NCBI GenBank assembly: GCA_019638395.1
Contig: JAHBTX010000002.1
Span: 558,001-622,000, forward strand
Reading direction: 5' to 3'
Length of the DNA stretch: 64,000 nt
Source: Cyclobacteriaceae bacterium
GTDB lineage: Bacteria > Bacteroidota > Bacteroidia > Cytophagales > Cyclobacteriaceae
Made by a program: the position numbers and the translations under genes
In this document: positions 4,535-26,093 of the stretch, piece after piece
How positions within the stretch are numbered: position 1 is the stretch's first letter
How the letters are laid out: every line of letters starts with the position of its first letter
The notes under the pieces: model-generated
What the model was told of the DNA's origin: nothing
The model's input: only the letters and a program-made list of their open reading frames with translations
Database searches by the model: none

Positions 4535-5320
4535 TTACCTGCTGCTCTGCTGGCTGGCCAGTTTCTTTTTGATTTTCATCATAATACCATCAGGTGTAAT
4601 GCGTGGCAGATTGGAAATAAACCAATTGTTAAAGCCAACAATCTTTTTCCCTTTTCCTTTCAATAAAAGTTCAACACCTTGCTTTGCTACTGTGCTGGCA
4701 GGCATTGGTTTGTTAGCTTTATAAGCATTGGTTTTCCACATCGCATCTGTGTTAAAAGCAGTATCAACCGGCCCTGGACACAATGTGGTTACAGTAACAC
4801 CGCTCCCCTCTAGTTCTGCTGCCAGGGTTTCGGAAAAAGCCAGCACAAAAGCCTTGGTGGCAGAATAGACCGAATAGTATGGAAATGGAAGAAAAGAAAG
4901 TAAGGAAGCAACATTCATAATGCGACCACTTTTTCGAACGATCATATCCTGAATAAATAATTTTGTAAGGGTTACCACTGAAGCAATGTTTAGTTCGATC
5001 ATGCGGAGTTCGGCTTGCAAATCGGTATTTATGAAATCTCCATATATGCCCGTTCCGGCATTGTTAACCAACATGGTTACCGCTATTCCGTCTTTTCGCA
5101 CCTCCTCGTATAACTGCATTGCCTGAGTAGGATCAGCAAGATCTTTGGAAAAGACATGAACTTTTATGTTGTGCTCTTGCTCCAGTTTAGTTTTAATTTG
5201 GTGAAGCCTTTCAGGTTGTCTGGCCACCAGCACTAGATCGAATTTTTGAGAGGCTAATAAAACAGCCATTTCATAGCCAATGCCAGCGGTGGCTCCCGTA
5301 ATCAGGATAGTGTCTTTCAT
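4535..5320 (-). CDS. short-chain dehydrogenase/reductase
   Basis: The start at 5320 (MKDTILITG) is chosen because the Rossmann strand begins there; an upstream in-frame start adds 22 residues without family character. The 261-residue protein has the NAD(P)-binding TGATAGIG motif (8-15), an NNAG motif and the YSVYSATK catalytic segment, with the Ser upstream in NVASLLS. It belongs to the classical DltE/YqjQ-like SDRs. Its substrate is unknown. It converges on the pirin gene and follows a Crp/Fnr gene on the same strand. Confidence 0.85.
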   Translation of the reverse strand: MKDTILITGATAGIGYEMAVLLASQKFDLVLVARQPERLHQIKTKLEQEHNIKVHVFSKDLADPTQAMQLYEEVRKDGIAVTMLVNNAGTGIYGDFINTDLQAELRMIELNIASVVTLTKLFIQDMIVRKSGRIMNVASLLSFLPFPYYSVYSATKAFVLAFSETLAAELEGSGVTVTTLCPGPVDTAFNTDAMWKTNAYKANKPMPASTVAKQGVELLLKGKGKKIVGFNNWFISNLPRITPDGIMMKIKKKLASQQSSR

Positions 5321-5404
5321 TTTGCAGCGGGTTAATATTTTCTGGTAACAAATGTGGCTGGCGCAATTTGCCTGGCACGATAACATTTGTTTAGAATAAC
5401 CCGT

Positions 5405-5977
5405 CTATAAAGATTTTTTCAAACGGCTCAAATGCACGGGGCTAACACCTAAATAGGAAGCGATCATGTGCTGAGGCACACGGTTGTGAATGTTGGGAAA
5501 AACCTTGCTTAGGTTTTCGTAACGCTGGGCGGGTGTAAACAGATATTGATTTTTGAGTCGGATGTCGAAGTAGATAAAGTAATATTCCGCAATAAGCCGC
5601 CCCAGTTTATCACCCTGTTGTAAGTTGGCGTAACCCCATTCAATAGCTTTGCGCGGCAGCACCACCACTTCGGTTTCTTCTACGGCCTGCAAACTGTTGG
5701 TTGCCGGAGTCTGCAACATGAAGCTGGTGTAGTCACAAATAAATTGGTTCTCGAGTGAAAAATGGATGGTGTGTTCTTCGCCAGCGGTATCAACTATTAA
5801 ACTCCGGGTAATGCCTTTGATGATAAAAAAAATATCCTGACAAACTTCGCCCTGTCTGCCCAAAAATTCTTTTTGATGAAAAGTCTTGAAATAACAAAAG
5901 GATAGAAACTTTTCGGCTTCTTGATCAAACATAGTGATCATTTGGCGCATAGCCCCTATCAGTGGCTCTTTGTTCAT
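5405..5977 (-). CDS. Crp/Fnr family transcriptional regulator
   Basis: This 190-residue protein has a beta-roll domain (GRQGEVCQDIFFIIKGITRSL, near 39-59) and a compact C-terminal HTH (HMIASYLGVSPVHLSRLKKSL). It is related to, but clearly different from, the regulator at 2603-3172. It sits upstream of the SDR on the same strand and may control it. A hydrophobic effector pocket is likely, but the ligand cannot be read. Confidence 0.85.
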   Translation of the reverse strand: MNKEPLIGAMRQMITMFDQEAEKFLSFCYFKTFHQKEFLGRQGEVCQDIFFIIKGITRSLIVDTAGEEHTIHFSLENQFICDYTSFMLQTPATNSLQAVEETEVVVLPRKAIEWGYANLQQGDKLGRLIAEYYFIYFDIRLKNQYLFTPAQRYENLSKVFPNIHNRVPQHMIASYLGVSPVHLSRLKKSL

Positions 5978-6036
5978 AATCTAACTTGTTAAAGCCTATT
6001 ATAAACGCCTCTATATTCAAGATTGTTTAAAAAATA

Positions 6037-6064
6037 AAATAGCTGCCCGGCAAAGCAGCTATTT
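6037..6064 (-). terminator. intrinsic terminator of the small membrane protein gene
   Basis: A 10-base perfect stem (6037-6046 with 6055-6064) has an 8-base loop. Read on the minus strand it is followed by TATTTTATTTTTT, a classic U-tract, 20 bases after the stop of the gene at 6084-6236. Confidence 0.75.
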
Positions 6065-6083
6065 GTTGAACTCCATTTTTAAC

Positions 6084-6236
6084 CTAGCTCCTCCGGCCCC
6101 GGATAAGTTGCAACAGAATTGAAATTACGGCCAGCACTAATAACAGGTGAATCAGTTGGCCAGCGCTGTAAACAAAGGCTCCTAACAGCCATCCGATAAT
6201 CAGAATTACAGCAAGGATGTATAACAGGTTACTCAT
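6084..6236 (-). CDS. lmo0937-like 50-residue membrane protein
   Basis: The short reading frame from the ATG at 6236 encodes 50 residues: MSNLLYILAVILIIGW, then two hydrophobic helices split by GAFVYSAGQLIH, and a basic end IRGRRS. This is the pattern of the lmo0937 family of tiny two-helix membrane proteins, common in Bacteroidota near stress genes. A U-tract terminator follows. It is divergent from a YtxH-like gene, hinting at a shared stress response (inference). Confidence 0.8.
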   Translation of the reverse strand: MSNLLYILAVILIIGWLLGAFVYSAGQLIHLLLVLAVISILLQLIRGRRS

Positions 6237-6510
6237 ATTTGAAAAGGTTTGATTTACCGATGTAAATGAAAATGATGTGCCATATGGAAATGAACCCTCT
6301 TAAACGTTTAGAAGAGAAAATTTTAGTTAATTGTTGTAGAAAATTGCCTCAAGGTGAGGAATAAACCCCGACCAACACAAATCGAAAAATTCAGTTTTGT
6401 TATAAAAATTCAAGTTTTGGTTGAATTACCGGCATTGGTATCATTATGTGTTTAAGGATTTAGCAAAAGGAAAATCCTGATTGGAAAATGTTAAACTAAA
6501 CACAACAACT

Positions 6511-21633: not shown

Positions 21634-23205
21634 TTACTTACTCAAAATGAAAGTTGGAGCCTTGCGATGTTTGGTGGCTTGTTCATAGCCATAGGCAATT
21701 TCAATCAATGTAGGCTCTTGCCAGGCGGTACTGAAGAATGAAACCCCAACCGGTAATACATCTGCAAAACCCATGGGCACCGTGATGGCAGGATAACCTG
21801 AAATCGCGGCAAGTGAAGAGCTGCCCCCCAGAAAATGATCACCATCAATCAAATCAGTCTTCCAGGCCGGTGCGCCTGTTGGTGCCATCAATGCATGCAG
21901 ATTATTTTCTTTTAACAATTTATCAATACCGTTTTCGCGGGTAGCTTTCTGCATGTTGGCCAAAGCGTCTAAATATGCTTTGTCTTGTAGCGTGCCTTTC
22001 TCGTGTGCTAGTTTTAATAACTGTTGATCGAAGTATTTTAACTCAATAGTATCTTTCTTATTGAACTCCATCAACTCAGCCAAGTCGTGCACACGGGCTT
22101 TATCGCCCAGACTGGCAAAATATTTAGTAAGGCCGTCTTTAAACTCATACAACAACACCGTAAACGAAGAACCTCCGGCACTGCGGTCCATATTAAAATC
22201 GATTTCAATCACCTCTGCACCTTGTGCGCGGATATCAGCCACAGCTTTTTTCATTAATGTATCTACTGCAGCATGGTAGCCTCCAATATTTTTTAATAAT
22301 CCAATGCGTTTGCCTTTTAAGCCATCGGCTTTCAAATGCGAAGTGTAATCAGTCTTATATTTACCAGTTGACGCTAATGTCTTTTCATCAGTTGAATCAA
22401 CGCCCACTAAAGCCCCCAATGTAATGGCAACATCGGTAACCGTGCGCCCCATCGGTCCGGCTGTATCTTGCGTAAACGAAATGGGTATAATACCACTACG
22501 GCTCAACAACCCAACCGTAGGTTTTAATCCTACCAACCCATTGGCGTTGGAAGGGCATACAATCGAACCATTAGTCTCTGTGCCAATAGCAATGGCACAT
22601 AAGTTTGCCGAGGCCGCCACACCCGAACCCGAACTGGAACCACACGGATTGCGATCGAGTACATACGGATTTTTGGTTTGCCCCAACATACCACTCCAAC
22701 CACTGCTGCTCATATCGGCCCGAAAGTTGGCCCACTCGCTTAAGTTTGCTTTCGCGATGATAACAGCACCAGCAGCTCGTAGTTTTTTAACAAGAAAGCT
22801 ATCATCAGGTGGGTAAGAATCGCGTAACACGGTTGCCCCGGCCGTAGTAGGCATATCGGCTGTGTTCATGTTATCTTTAATGATAACCGGAATGCCATGC
22901 AGCAACCCACGACTTTTACCCGCTTGCAATTCCGCATCCAACGTTCGGGCAATTTCTAGTGCCTGGGGATTTACGTAAATAATGGAGTTGAGGGTGGGCC
23001 CGTTCTTGTCCAGGTCTTCAATACGCTGCAGGTAATCTTTTACCACTTGCTCAATCGTAAACGTGCTTTTCTGATAACCCACTTGTAACTGGGGGATGGT
23101 CATCTCCTCCAGGTATTGATGTGCCGGTGTGGATTCTTTTTCTTTAGGTTGTTCACAGGCCAGCACAATGATGGCAGCCAGAAACAAAATACGGGTTGAT
23201 TTCAT
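21634..23205 (-). CDS. amidase-signature family lipoprotein
   Basis: The 523-residue enzyme has a lipobox VLAC (C17), so it is probably membrane-anchored outside the cytoplasm. The catalytic triad is present: K110 in VIIKDN, the cis-Ser in GSSSGSG (190-191) and the nucleophile S214 in TETNGS. Amidase-signature enzymes hydrolyse amide bonds; this one is far from the GatA of tRNA amidation, given its export. It is divergent from the ATP-grasp pair. Confidence 0.85.
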   Translation of the reverse strand: MKSTRILFLAAIIVLACEQPKEKESTPAHQYLEEMTIPQLQVGYQKSTFTIEQVVKDYLQRIEDLDKNGPTLNSIIYVNPQALEIARTLDAELQAGKSRGLLHGIPVIIKDNMNTADMPTTAGATVLRDSYPPDDSFLVKKLRAAGAVIIAKANLSEWANFRADMSSSGWSGMLGQTKNPYVLDRNPCGSSSGSGVAASANLCAIAIGTETNGSIVCPSNANGLVGLKPTVGLLSRSGIIPISFTQDTAGPMGRTVTDVAITLGALVGVDSTDEKTLASTGKYKTDYTSHLKADGLKGKRIGLLKNIGGYHAAVDTLMKKAVADIRAQGAEVIEIDFNMDRSAGGSSFTVLLYEFKDGLTKYFASLGDKARVHDLAELMEFNKKDTIELKYFDQQLLKLAHEKGTLQDKAYLDALANMQKATRENGIDKLLKENNLHALMAPTGAPAWKTDLIDGDHFLGGSSSLAAISGYPAITVPMGFADVLPVGVSFFSTAWQEPTLIEIAYGYEQATKHRKAPTFILSK

Positions 23206-23520
23206 AGAGGATTTTATGGATGATAAAGTTACTGTGTGCCTAACATCATACCTAACCGCTTAACAAATTACAGCCTTGCGTGCTTTCGATCAAACCTATT
23301 GATAACCGTTAAGCTTATCGCTTATGAGGTAACTACGTCCCTGCAGTTTAACCGGTATAACTGCTAAGAAGTAAGCCATAATGCCTGCTTGGTGTTAGGG
23401 CTAACCAAAGCTTTTAAGAATAAATATTGACAAGTACTTTACTTTAATAATAATATTTATTGAAATTGCATAAACTATGGCAAATAGTACTTTACTGCAC
23501 CCTCTGCGGTTGTTGGGTTT
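23206..23520. other. divergent region before the ATP-grasp genes
   Basis: These 315 bases separate divergent genes. They contain a TTGAC (23427) and A/T-rich TAATATTTATTG (23451-23462) as a possible promoter, an 11-base direct repeat AGTACTTTACT at 23433-23443 and 23486-23496, and a 15-codon reading frame (23477-23524) that overlaps the next start. Nothing else was seen. Confidence 0.5.
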
Positions 23521-23524
23521 ATGA
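23477..23524 (+). CDS. possible 15-residue leader peptide
   Basis: The ATG at 23477 opens 15 codons (MANSTLLHPLRLLGL) whose TGA overlaps the ATG of the ATP-grasp gene as ATGA, the classic layout for translational coupling. It could be a regulatory leader, a peptide substrate or chance. It is too short for any family call. Confidence 0.3.
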   Translation: MANSTLLHPLRLLGL

Positions 23525-24612
23525 CATTACTCAACGATATAACCGCCTATAAAATCTGGATATTTGCTCCTTACCTGGAGACGGAAGACCCTACTCTAAA
23601 ATTTTATTACGACTATACCCAAAGCATTGAAGAATACACGCGGGTATTCGCAGAGATCAATTGCGAATGGGAGTGGGTAAACGTTACGGTACATAACATT
23701 GCTGAGTGCATAGAGCGGGTAAAGAACTACTCAGCGAAACAAAGCATAGTATTAAACCTGTGCGATGGCGATGAAATTAACAACGTTCCCGGAGTATCGG
23801 TTATCCATGCCCTGGACGAAAGCGGTATTACCTATACCGGTTCCGATTCTTACTTCTATAATGTAACCACTTCTAAAATCACCATGAAAGAAGCTTTTGG
23901 TAAAGCCGGGGTAGCAATGCCAGGCTGGCAAAAGCTAAACGGACACATCGATCCGGATCTTTTCAAGAAGGTGGGCAAACCCATTATTGTTAAGCCTGCC
24001 GTATCGGCTGGTAGCATGGGTATAAGCGTAAAGAATGTGGTGAATGGAAAGCGTGAATTAAAAAATGTGCTCACCGATCTGCACAATGGCTTTAAAGGTT
24101 GGGATCTGGATACCGCTGGCTTGTTGGCCGAGCAGTTTATTATCGGGCGCGAGTTTACTACACTATTGGTAGGGTCGCACCATAAACCCGAACAGATTAA
24201 ATTCTATCAACCTATAGAACGTGTGTTTCATAAAGGCTTACCCGAAAAAGAACAGTTCCTTTCGTTTGAACGCCTGTGGGAAGCATACGATGAAGAAGCA
24301 CCACCACCGGACAATGGATTTCTGTATGAATACGCCCCGGTTATGGATTTTTGTCTGGCACAAGAACTAAAAGAACTAAGCATTGATGCCTTTAAAGCCG
24401 TGAAGGGTGTGGGTTATGCGCGGCTAGATTTCAGGCTGGACAAGAAAACCGGAAAACTATTTGTATTGGAGATTAATGCCCAATGTGGCTTGAGCGAAGA
24501 CGAGAACTATACCTCCATAGGCGCTATTCTGCGCGTAAGTAATAAGACCTTCACCAACCTGATTGTAGAAGTACTGGAAGATGCCCTGCTTCGCAATACA
24601 GCCAACAGCTAA
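23521..24612 (+). CDS. ATP-grasp ligase (D-Ala-D-Ala ligase-like)
   Basis: The 363-residue protein has a pre-ATP-grasp domain (about 1-110, with IVLNLCDGDE and YTGSDS) and an ATP-grasp fold: K158 in VKPAVSAGSMG, LAEQFIIGREFT, GYARLDFR (R301) and metal ligands in E317-I-N319. These enzymes join a carboxylate to an amine via an acyl phosphate. The substrate is unknown; the ddlA/ddlB fold is clear but the neighbourhood is not a cell-wall cluster. The paralogue starts 35 bases later. Confidence 0.82.
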   Translation: MTLLNDITAYKIWIFAPYLETEDPTLKFYYDYTQSIEEYTRVFAEINCEWEWVNVTVHNIAECIERVKNYSAKQSIVLNLCDGDEINNVPGVSVIHALDESGITYTGSDSYFYNVTTSKITMKEAFGKAGVAMPGWQKLNGHIDPDLFKKVGKPIIVKPAVSAGSMGISVKNVVNGKRELKNVLTDLHNGFKGWDLDTAGLLAEQFIIGREFTTLLVGSHHKPEQIKFYQPIERVFHKGLPEKEQFLSFERLWEAYDEEAPPPDNGFLYEYAPVMDFCLAQELKELSIDAFKAVKGVGYARLDFRLDKKTGKLFVLEINAQCGLSEDENYTSIGAILRVSNKTFTNLIVEVLEDALLRNTANS

Positions 24613-24647
24613 CAAACAAAATCCCTGCACGTAAAAGAAATCCGGAT

Positions 24648-26093
24648 ATGAAGGTTTGTGTGTTGCAGCCCGATTACAGTACAACCGAAGTTGATTACAA
24701 AAACTACGATCCACCCCGTAACCTCGCTCCGCTGTTACCAAACGATCAGGTTGATCATGTATTTCTAAATAAGCTTACTACCTACAAGCAACTGAAAGAA
24801 CTGCGCAAGCAGAAGTACGATATTTATGTAAACCTATGCGAAGGTTATCTGGATTGGTCGGTACCGTCTATCGATGTAATTAATTCAATGGATGCATTGA
24901 ACCTACCTTACACCGGGCCCAATGCAGTTTTATACGATCCGCCTAAATCACTGATGAAGTATGTGGCCTATTGTGCCGGTGTTGCCACTCCGCTTTATGC
25001 AGAAGTTACAGGCAGCCACAACCTGGAAGCTAAAGTAAGCCACTTAAAGTTTCCATTGTTTGTAAAGCCCGCCAAAGCAGGCGATAGCCTGGGTGTGGAC
25101 GATGAATCGCTTGCCCAGGATATTCCACATCTACAACACAAAGTTGAAAGTCTGCTGGCCGAAGGCTATGACGAAATTCTGATTGAAGAATACATTGCCG
25201 GGCAGGAGTTTACCGTATTGGTAGCGGCCAACGTTCAACCAAAGTATGGAGCAATTGCCTTTAAGCCGATTGAATACAAATTCCCGAAAGGCTATGCCTT
25301 TAAAACCTATGCGCTCAAAACATCGGAGTTGCATACCGATGTAAATAAACCCTGTACGGATGCTGACCTCGAAGTGCGCCTGAAGCTGGCTGCCGAAAAA
25401 ATCTTTACCGGATTTTCAGGCGTAGGCTATGCGCGGTTGGATTTCCGGGTAAACGAAAAACAGGAAATCTATTTTCTGGAAATCAATTTTACCTGCTCCG
25501 TCTTTTATGAAGATGGCTACGAAGGATCTGCCGATTACATTCTGCAATTTGATCCGATTGGTAAGGCTGGATTTTTAAAACATATTATTGAAGAAGGCAA
25601 AGCCCGCTACGCGGCCAAACAAAAAAAGTATCGGGTTAAAGGTAACTCCATAAACGGGTATGGTATTGTAGCACAAAAATCCATCCGCAAAGGCGAAACC
25701 ATTTTTAAGTTTGAAGAAGCCGCCCAACGCCTCGTTACCAAACGGTACGTAGAACAAAACTGGACACAGCAGCAGCGCGAAGAGTTTAAGCATTATGCCT
25801 ACCCCATTTCCGATGAGGTTTATATTTTGTGGGATCATAAACCTGAAAACTGGGCGCCACAGAATCATTGTTGTGCACCCAACACCATTTACAATGGCCT
25901 TAACTTAATTGCCCTACGCGATATTGAGGCCGAAGAAGAACTTACGTTGGATTATGCCGACTTGTTGGACGACACCATACCATCTTTTGTATGTACGTGT
26001 GGCCACCCCAATTGCCGGAAAGTTGTTTCAGGCCGAGCCGATAACTCAATAACGAAGCGGGAGAAAATTAACGTGAATCCACCACAAGTTTAA
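24648..26093 (+). CDS. ATP-grasp ligase fused to a SET-domain methyltransferase
   Basis: The 481-residue protein has an ATP-grasp ligase (about 1-318: K140 in FVKPAKAGDS, IEEYIAGQEFT, GYARLDFR, E278-I-N280). A C-terminal SET domain (about 328-470) follows. The SET hallmarks are intact: GYG (337-339), N406-H-C-C-A-P-N412, ELTLDY with the catalytic Y436, and post-SET cysteines C449, C451 and C456. SET domains methylate lysine. The ligase half is related to the preceding gene, so the two probably act together on one substrate, perhaps a peptide or protein (inference). Confidence 0.85.
   Translation: MKVCVLQPDYSTTEVDYKNYDPPRNLAPLLPNDQVDHVFLNKLTTYKQLKELRKQKYDIYVNLCEGYLDWSVPSIDVINSMDALNLPYTGPNAVLYDPPKSLMKYVAYCAGVATPLYAEVTGSHNLEAKVSHLKFPLFVKPAKAGDSLGVDDESLAQDIPHLQHKVESLLAEGYDEILIEEYIAGQEFTVLVAANVQPKYGAIAFKPIEYKFPKGYAFKTYALKTSELHTDVNKPCTDADLEVRLKLAAEKIFTGFSGVGYARLDFRVNEKQEIYFLEINFTCSVFYEDGYEGSADYILQFDPIGKAGFLKHIIEEGKARYAAKQKKYRVKGNSINGYGIVAQKSIRKGETIFKFEEAAQRLVTKRYVEQNWTQQQREEFKHYAYPISDEVYILWDHKPENWAPQNHCCAPNTIYNGLNLIALRDIEAEEELTLDYADLLDDTIPSFVCTCGHPNCRKVVSGRADNSITKREKINVNPPQV

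What the first reader, a model, noticed from the sequence alone, without database searches (positions are those of the whole stretch)
23477..26093. Paired ATP-grasp ligases, one fused to an intact SET methyltransferase, behind a 15-codon leader
Seen: two adjacent ligase-fold proteins of related design (K158, E317-I-N319; K140, E278-I-N280). The second carries a complete SET domain (NHCCAPN 406-412, Y436, three post-SET cysteines). The first gene starts in the ATGA overlap with a 15-codon reading frame. Known: ATP-grasp enzymes form amide bonds and SET domains methylate lysine. Inference: one pathway ligates and methylates the same peptide or small molecule; the leader could be substrate or regulator. 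No cell-wall or known RiPP gene is nearby.
Basis: partly seen in the sequence, partly recalled or inferred. Interest (0 to 1): 0.78.

Follow-up and report, generated by a model that had tools for sequence, protein, structure and literature searches.

The report
Ligase pair with fused methyltransferase
Two neighbouring bacterial genes encode a pair of amide-bond-making enzymes, one of them fused to a SET methyltransferase, and they travel through related bacteria together with a second SET enzyme, which suggests an undescribed pathway making a methylated small molecule; the short "leader peptide" in front of them is more likely part of a DNA control site.

Summary
In detail: an ATP-grasp protein (363 aa, 23521-24612) is followed 35 bp later by an ATP-grasp protein with an intact SET domain (481 aa, 24648-26093). 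Catalytic residues are kept in 34 of 34 and 44-45 of 45 aligned relatives. The pairing is real: 34 of 46 loci have both, 32 of those within 100 bp, and in 395 genomes of the phylum the partner orthologue occurs in exactly the 6 that hold a close homologue of the fusion. All 15 genomes with a strong match to it hold a fusion homologue. In the window's genome it lies elsewhere. In two lineages ABC-transporter genes stand beside the fusion. Most likely reading: ligases and SET enzymes build a methylated peptide-like metabolite, perhaps exported in some lineages; the substrate is unknown. The 15-codon leader is not a conserved peptide. It contains a 13-base element, CTATGGCAAATAG, that in the genus also stands before pcm. 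The enzymes are not Ddl and not proven lysine methyltransferases.

The parts
23521..24612 (+). P0001: stand-alone ATP-grasp ligase of D-Ala-D-Ala-ligase fold, 363 aa
   Evidence: K158, R301, D303, E317, N319 in 34 of 34 aligned homologues
24648..26093 (+). P0002: ATP-grasp ligase fused to a C-terminal SET methyltransferase, 481 aa
   Evidence: K140, R263, D265, N280 in 45 of 45, E278 in 44 of 45
25656..25955 (+). SET domain of P0002 (residues 337-436), NHCCAPN and Y436
   Evidence: Pfam SET 2.2e-11; N406, H407, C409, D435, Y436 in 45 of 45
25992..26015 (+). post-SET cysteines C449, C451, C456
   Evidence: 45 of 45 aligned homologues
23475..23487 (+). 13-base conserved element CTATGGCAAATAG, shared with the upstream region of pcm in the genus; contains the leader ATG
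   Evidence: 12 of 12 aligned loci; 31 matches in 58 genus genomes against 4 for the reversed pattern; contexts
23477..23524 (+). 15-codon 'leader' frame, TGA overlapping the P0001 start; not conserved as a peptide

Best explanation
The pair is the core of an undescribed small-molecule pathway. P0001 and the ATP-grasp half of P0002 each activate a carboxylate by phosphorylation with ATP and join it to an amine, making a short peptide or amino-acid amide. The SET half of P0002, and a partner SET enzyme encoded elsewhere in this genome (G000:C1:257494-257973), methylate a building block or the product with SAM. In some relatives the product may be exported by an ABC-type transporter encoded next door. 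Shown: the genes, the ligase folds, the conserved catalytic residues, the linkage and the co-occurrence. Inferred: amide formation, methylation of a small molecule rather than a protein lysine, the order of steps, and export. Not known: the substrate. An amino acid such as methionine (as for BurB) or an amine are the leading guesses.
Against: No substrate evidence. P0002 and C1 keep the NHxC asparagine typical of lysine methyltransferases (recalled), which BurB lacks (alignment). In the window genome no transporter lies beside the pair and PF13748 is absent; PF13748 is found in only 3 of the 6 core genomes and in 17 of the other 389. P0001 is not needed in the g59 genomes, G211 or G340, which have only the fusion. 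The 46 loci are mostly near relatives found with the window's own peptides, so they are not independent.
Confidence: 0.6

Rival explanations
1. Protein modification: the ATP-grasp enzymes add amino acids to a protein, as tubulin-tyrosine-ligase-like enzymes do, and the SET domains methylate lysines of the same protein.
For: SET domains are best known as lysine methyltransferases (PMC12542666); TTLL12 of eukaryotes joins a SET-like and a TTL (ATP-grasp-like) domain (PMC3520985, passages). One distant homologue (G211) lies upstream of N-formylglutamate amidohydrolase, MATCAP-type carboxypeptidase and glutathione-synthetase-like genes.
Against: No recurrent target-protein gene was seen beside the pair in the gene clusters. 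The closest solved SET for both SET proteins is a small-molecule enzyme. Neighbouring transporters in two lineages fit a diffusible product better.
Confidence: 0.2
2. The ligases act on a peptide precursor (RiPP-like tailoring), with SET methylating the peptide.
For: ATP-grasp enzymes modify ribosomal peptides in graspetides (recalled, no call).
Against: The only candidate precursor, the leader, is not conserved as a peptide. No systematic search for other short conserved ORFs was made.
Confidence: 0.12
3. They are variant cell-wall D-Ala-D-Ala-type ligases.
For: Ddl fold and Dala_Dala_lig_C domain.
Against: The genome has its own Ddl with the GGRSVEHGVS motif (L003), scoring 403 against a cut-off of 262; P0001 and P0002 score 70 and 74 against 246 for TIGR01205 and lack the N-terminal motif.
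Confidence: 0.05

Closest known systems
BurB (SET-domain methionine S-methyltransferase, DMSP/malleicyprol pathway)
   Same: Best SET hit among solved structures for P0002 and for the C1 protein of L034; SET plus post-SET cysteines; small bacterial SET protein of a biosynthetic pathway (PMC12542666).
   Different: BurB is a 172-residue single-domain enzyme without a ligase; it has LHSC where P0002 and C1 have NHxC; the substrate of P0002/C1 is untested.
[quoted passage not shown]
   Same: Fold, and the aligned Lys, Arg/Asp and Glu-x-Asn positions.
   Different: Scores far below the family cut-offs; no N-terminal GGxSxEH motif; both families carry an invariant NxxC where the genome's Ddl has NTIPG; one is fused to SET.
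TTLL12 (eukaryotic SET-like + TTL protein)
   Same: Combines a SET-like with an ATP-grasp-like ligase domain (PMC3520985, passages).
   Different: Opposite domain order; according to the paper its SET-like part lacks a critical asparagine and shows no histone methyltransferase activity in vitro; P0002 keeps the SET asparagine N406 in 45 of 45.

Membership tests
D-alanine--D-alanine ligase (TIGR01205) | score above curated cut-off | tested here: not met
   P0001 70.2 and P0002 73.7 against 245.65 bits; the genome's own Ddl (L003) passes with 322.4
D-alanine--D-alanine ligase (TIGR01205) | N-terminal GGxSxEH substrate motif (recalled) | tested here: not met
   absent in P0001 and P0002, present in L003
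ATP-grasp carboxylate-amine ligase superfamily | ATP-grasp fold with conserved Lys, Arg/Asp and Glu-x-Asn | tested here: met
ATP-grasp carboxylate-amine ligase superfamily | ATP-dependent amide bond formation | not testable with these tools
   no assay
SET-domain methyltransferase | SET domain with NHxC, catalytic Tyr and post-SET Cys | tested here: met
   Pfam 2.2e-11; 45 of 45 for N406, H407, C409, Y436, C449, C451, C456
SET-domain methyltransferase | SET fold by structure comparison | tested here: inconclusive
   fold lists for the P0002 model show Ddl chains only; the SET half was not searched alone
BurB-type methionine S-methyltransferase | sequence relation to BurB closer than to lysine methyltransferases | tested here: inconclusive
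   BurB is the best SET hit for both, but pairwise scores among bacterial SETs are close and the tree has long branches
BurB-type methionine S-methyltransferase | methylates free methionine | not testable with these tools
   no assay
Protein-lysine methyltransferase | protein lysine substrate | not testable with these tools
   no assay
RiPP (graspetide-like) cluster | conserved precursor peptide gene beside the ligase | tested here: inconclusive
   the 15-codon leader is not conserved as a peptide; other short ORFs were not searched systematically

The most novel reading that the evidence does not exclude
A biosynthetic pathway, not seen in the literature searches made here, in which one polypeptide both ligates and SET-methylates a small amino-acid-derived molecule, with a second BurB-like SET enzyme and a partner ligase, producing an exported methylated (sulfonium or N-methyl) peptide in several Bacteroidota lineages and in one that looks like Chlorobia.
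Probability: 0.4. Interest if true: 0.75.

Novelty: new variant of a known kind. Interest (0 to 1): 0.62.

Why it matters
Bacterial SET proteins are annotated as protein-lysine methyltransferases (so in the three annotated plasmid records opened here). A conserved ligase-SET enzyme that co-occurs with a BurB-like SET and in some lineages sits beside transporters argues that a class of them works in small-molecule chemistry, and it gives a defined, testable enzyme set for finding a new metabolite. The shared element before pcm offers a handle on when the pathway is switched on.

Tried and rejected
Leader as substrate or regulatory peptide: rejected after alignment of 12 loci and the finding of the same block before pcm. 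Leader as a known RNA: Rfam found nothing at gathering thresholds in the window, and near the leader only two weak matches on the other strand, E 0.46 and 1.2, far below their gathering scores. Consensus RNA folding of the 12 leaders gave -4.41 kcal/mol with a covariation term of +0.13; 3 of 16 pairs have a change on both sides, so little support for a structure. A sequence model of the element was built but never used in a search. A first alignment of the element had one copy on the wrong strand and was replaced.

Phage defence: no PADLOC match for P0001, P0002 or C1. Plasmid relatives of P0002: 149 records, none covering 80% of it; the 30 rows listed are mostly Van ligases and match only the ATP-grasp part. 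Viral contigs: 9 loci match the ATP-grasp part; I read two, L141 and L143, which carry a stand-alone ATP-grasp without SET. Fold search of P0002 listed only Ddl chains, so the SET fold rests on Pfam, motifs and model confidence. Tree of SET domains: C1 of the Bacteroidota loci and g59 form one clade (96/97), but rooting and the place of the plasmid SETs are unsure because of long branches. Three distant P0001-like proteins (G087, G125, G338; E about 1e-31) stand in neighbourhoods without SET genes by eye.

Papers, all ten searches: 'SET domain' with 'ATP-grasp' gave 2 papers, neither on a bacterial fusion; two searches gave none; in the others I judged by title and start of abstract, and two lists were cut (10 of 17 shown, 3 of 4). 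So 'not described' means not seen there. TTLL12 paper PMC3520985: listing and passages. BurB paper PMC12542666: parts 1-2 of 4. PMC3980110 and PMC1282579: passages.

The cuts for 'strong' orthologues (4.6e-149 for P0001, 5.8e-38 for C1) were set after seeing the gaps in the lists. Below them lie P0001 matches at 1.7e-37 and weaker (P0002 homologues, and the three just named) and C1 matches at 1.2e-29 (G259) and weaker (small SETs of g59, G203, G211, G039). Of the 16 other genomes with a P0002 homologue 12 were taken for neighbourhoods; four g59 genomes (G024, G225, G260, G342) were not. The P0001 row of L051 looks broken near its start; it was kept as it stands and counted.

Full report
What is there. 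The window lies in a 4.78 Mb genome (G000:C12:558001-622000); the nearest relatives of P0002 in a public genome set are MAGs labelled Cyclobacteriaceae, Cytophagales, Flammeovirgaceae or Bacteroidetes. Two ORFs on the + strand, P0001 (23521-24612, 363 aa) and P0002 (24648-26093, 481 aa), are separated by 35 bp. Both carry a D-Ala-D-Ala-ligase-type ATP-grasp domain, and P0002 adds a SET domain with three post-SET cysteines. AlphaFold2 models have mean pLDDT 89.1 (P0001) and 87.3 (P0002) and match Ddl structures. The SET half did not appear in the fold lists, which were filled by Ddl chains, so the SET assignment rests on Pfam and conserved motifs.

They are not the cell-wall enzyme. The genome has its own Ddl (L003), which passes curated cut-offs (403 against 262 bits for PRK01966.1-4) and has the GGRSVEHGVS motif. 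P0001 and P0002 score 70 and 74 against 246 for TIGR01205 and lack that motif. Both families share an invariant NxxC where the genome's Ddl has NTIPG.

Conservation. In the 34 aligned P0001 homologues K158, R301, D303, E317, N319 and C322 are invariant. In the 45 aligned P0002 homologues K140, R263, D265, N280, C283, N406, H407, C409, D435, Y436, C449, C451 and C456 are invariant and E278 is kept in 44.

Pairing. I compared 46 loci: the window, 33 from a scan of GTDB species genomes with the window's own peptides, and 12 of the 16 other genomes that matched in the phylum sample. P0001 is present in 34 of 46, within 100 bp of P0002 in 32, and with a 4-base overlap in 8. Among the 12 without it, L028 and L043 are cut by contig ends (L043 holds a partial copy), L047/L057 have the partner on another contig, and L048 and the seven distant loci L058-L064 lack it. 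In 395 genomes of the phylum, the window's included, P0002 homologues occur in 17. The P0001 orthologue occurs in 6, exactly the 6 with a P0002 homologue at 58-100% identity. The pair is patchy: the sampled congener G146 has neither.

A third component. In 22 of the 46 loci a family of stand-alone SET proteins (C1, about 160 aa) is linked. Where P0001 is also present, C1 lies within 63 bp upstream of it in 13 of 17 loci, 1.7-2.0 kb upstream in 3, and downstream in 1. In the window's genome the C1 gene is present but unlinked, at G000:C1:257494-257973. That genome has four SET hits in all: this one, P0002, and two neighbouring genes on another contig. In the 395-genome sample strong C1 matches are found in 15 genomes, all of them among the 17 with a P0002 homologue; the two without are G211 and G340. 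In G212 C1 and P0001 sit together on one contig and P0002 on another. So three genes keep company even when unlinked. The probabilities ignore shared ancestry.

What the SET enzymes may act on. The closest solved relative of the C1 protein of L034 is BurB (4.2e-11), ahead of KMT2A (1.3e-8); for P0002 the best SET hit is also BurB (9.7e-9 against 1.2e-5 for NSD2). BurB converts free methionine to S-methylmethionine (PMC12542666, parts 1-2 of 4 read). Seven plasmid records hold C1-like SETs; I opened four. One lies beside a polyketide synthase, a dioxygenase, an aminotransferase and an aldehyde dehydrogenase in Eleftheria, one beside a GHMP kinase, a PLP enzyme, a transporter and an alanine racemase in Tabrizicola; in one Streptomyces plasmid the context is unclear, and the fourth has no annotation there. 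In genome G203 two neighbouring genes join SET with AdoMet decarboxylase plus spermidine synthase, and SET with a C-terminal part that Pfam does not recognise and that I read by eye as ATP-grasp-like. Against this, P0002 and C1 keep the NHxC asparagine that BurB has lost, so a lysine-like amine substrate is equally possible. The data do not decide it.

Export. An ABC-type membrane protein without its ATPase (PF13748) lies beside P0002 in 8 of 46 loci (in L048 on the opposite strand). In a second lineage (g59, which looks like Chlorobia because a gene that I read by eye as a magnesium-chelatase subunit is near by in L060; recalled, not tested) a complete ABC exporter follows the fusion in 4 of 5 loci, the fifth being cut there. 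PF13748 occurs in 20 of 395 genomes, 3 of them among the 6 core ones, and those three are among the four strongest matches. The window's genome has none. Export is thus a hint from two lineages, not a property of this locus.

The leader. The 15-codon frame exists. Its stop falls near the P0001 start in 11 of 12 loci, but shuffling the leader body gives the same in 11-83% of trials depending on the locus (82% for the window), so this is weak evidence of coupling at best. Indels change the frame, and in L025 it continues into the gene. What is conserved is the DNA: CTATGGCAAATAG is identical in 12 of 12 loci. In 58 genomes of the genus CTATGGCAAATAGNNNT has 31 matches, in 22 genomes, against 4 for the reversed pattern. 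Of the 30 fetched, 12 precede P0001, 1 looks like a P0001 site cut by a contig end, 16 precede pcm (PF01135), and 1 is unrelated. One of the pcm sites is in G146, which has no P0002, so the site does not depend on this pathway. In 15 aligned pcm copies the left arm CACAG is invariant, while the facing CTGTG varies in some. A protein-binding site is the simplest reading; an RNA element is not excluded. The element links the pathway's control to that of a protein-repair gene.

Judgement. Best explanation, 0.6: a ligase-methyltransferase pathway making a methylated peptide-like small molecule. Rivals are protein modification (0.2), RiPP tailoring (0.12) and cell-wall variants (0.05). In ten searches of the held library I saw no listing of a bacterial ATP-grasp-SET fusion; TTLL12 is the only SET-plus-ATP-grasp-like protein seen, with opposite order and a defective SET part.

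Noticed in passing
window 23475-23487; G000:C1:314004-314016 (L105:1505-1517): The 13-base block CTATGGCAAATAG precedes both P0001 and pcm (protein-L-isoaspartate O-methyltransferase) across the genus, 12 and 16 of 30 fetched sites: a candidate shared regulatory element.
   Followed up: partly
L157:6465-8318 and 4989-6440 (- strand; genome G203): A SET domain fused to AdoMet decarboxylase and spermidine synthase, next to another SET protein with an unrecognised C-terminal part that looks ATP-grasp-like by eye: SET enzymes possibly acting on polyamines.
   Followed up: partly
L158:2041-7792 (genome G211): A distant P0002 homologue lies upstream of N-formylglutamate amidohydrolase, MATCAP-type carboxypeptidase and glutathione-synthetase-like genes.
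   Followed up: no
L150:1124-6128 (Tabrizicola plasmid): C1-like SET gene in a same-strand run with GHMP kinase, PLP enzyme, DMT transporter and alanine racemase: an unassigned small-molecule cluster.
   Followed up: no
L141:513-1469 and L143:6001-6957: Viral contigs with a stand-alone ATP-grasp protein about 30% identical to the ligase half of P0002, without SET.
   Followed up: no
window 21634-23205: Divergent amidase gene (PF01425) next to P0001; its family occurs in 11 of 46 loci, on the opposite strand upstream, so perhaps only synteny.
   Followed up: no
L060:6815-7174, L062:12756-13109, L063:6929-7282, L064:6839-7198: In the g59 lineage a second small SET gene (118-120 aa) follows the ABC exporter.
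   Followed up: no
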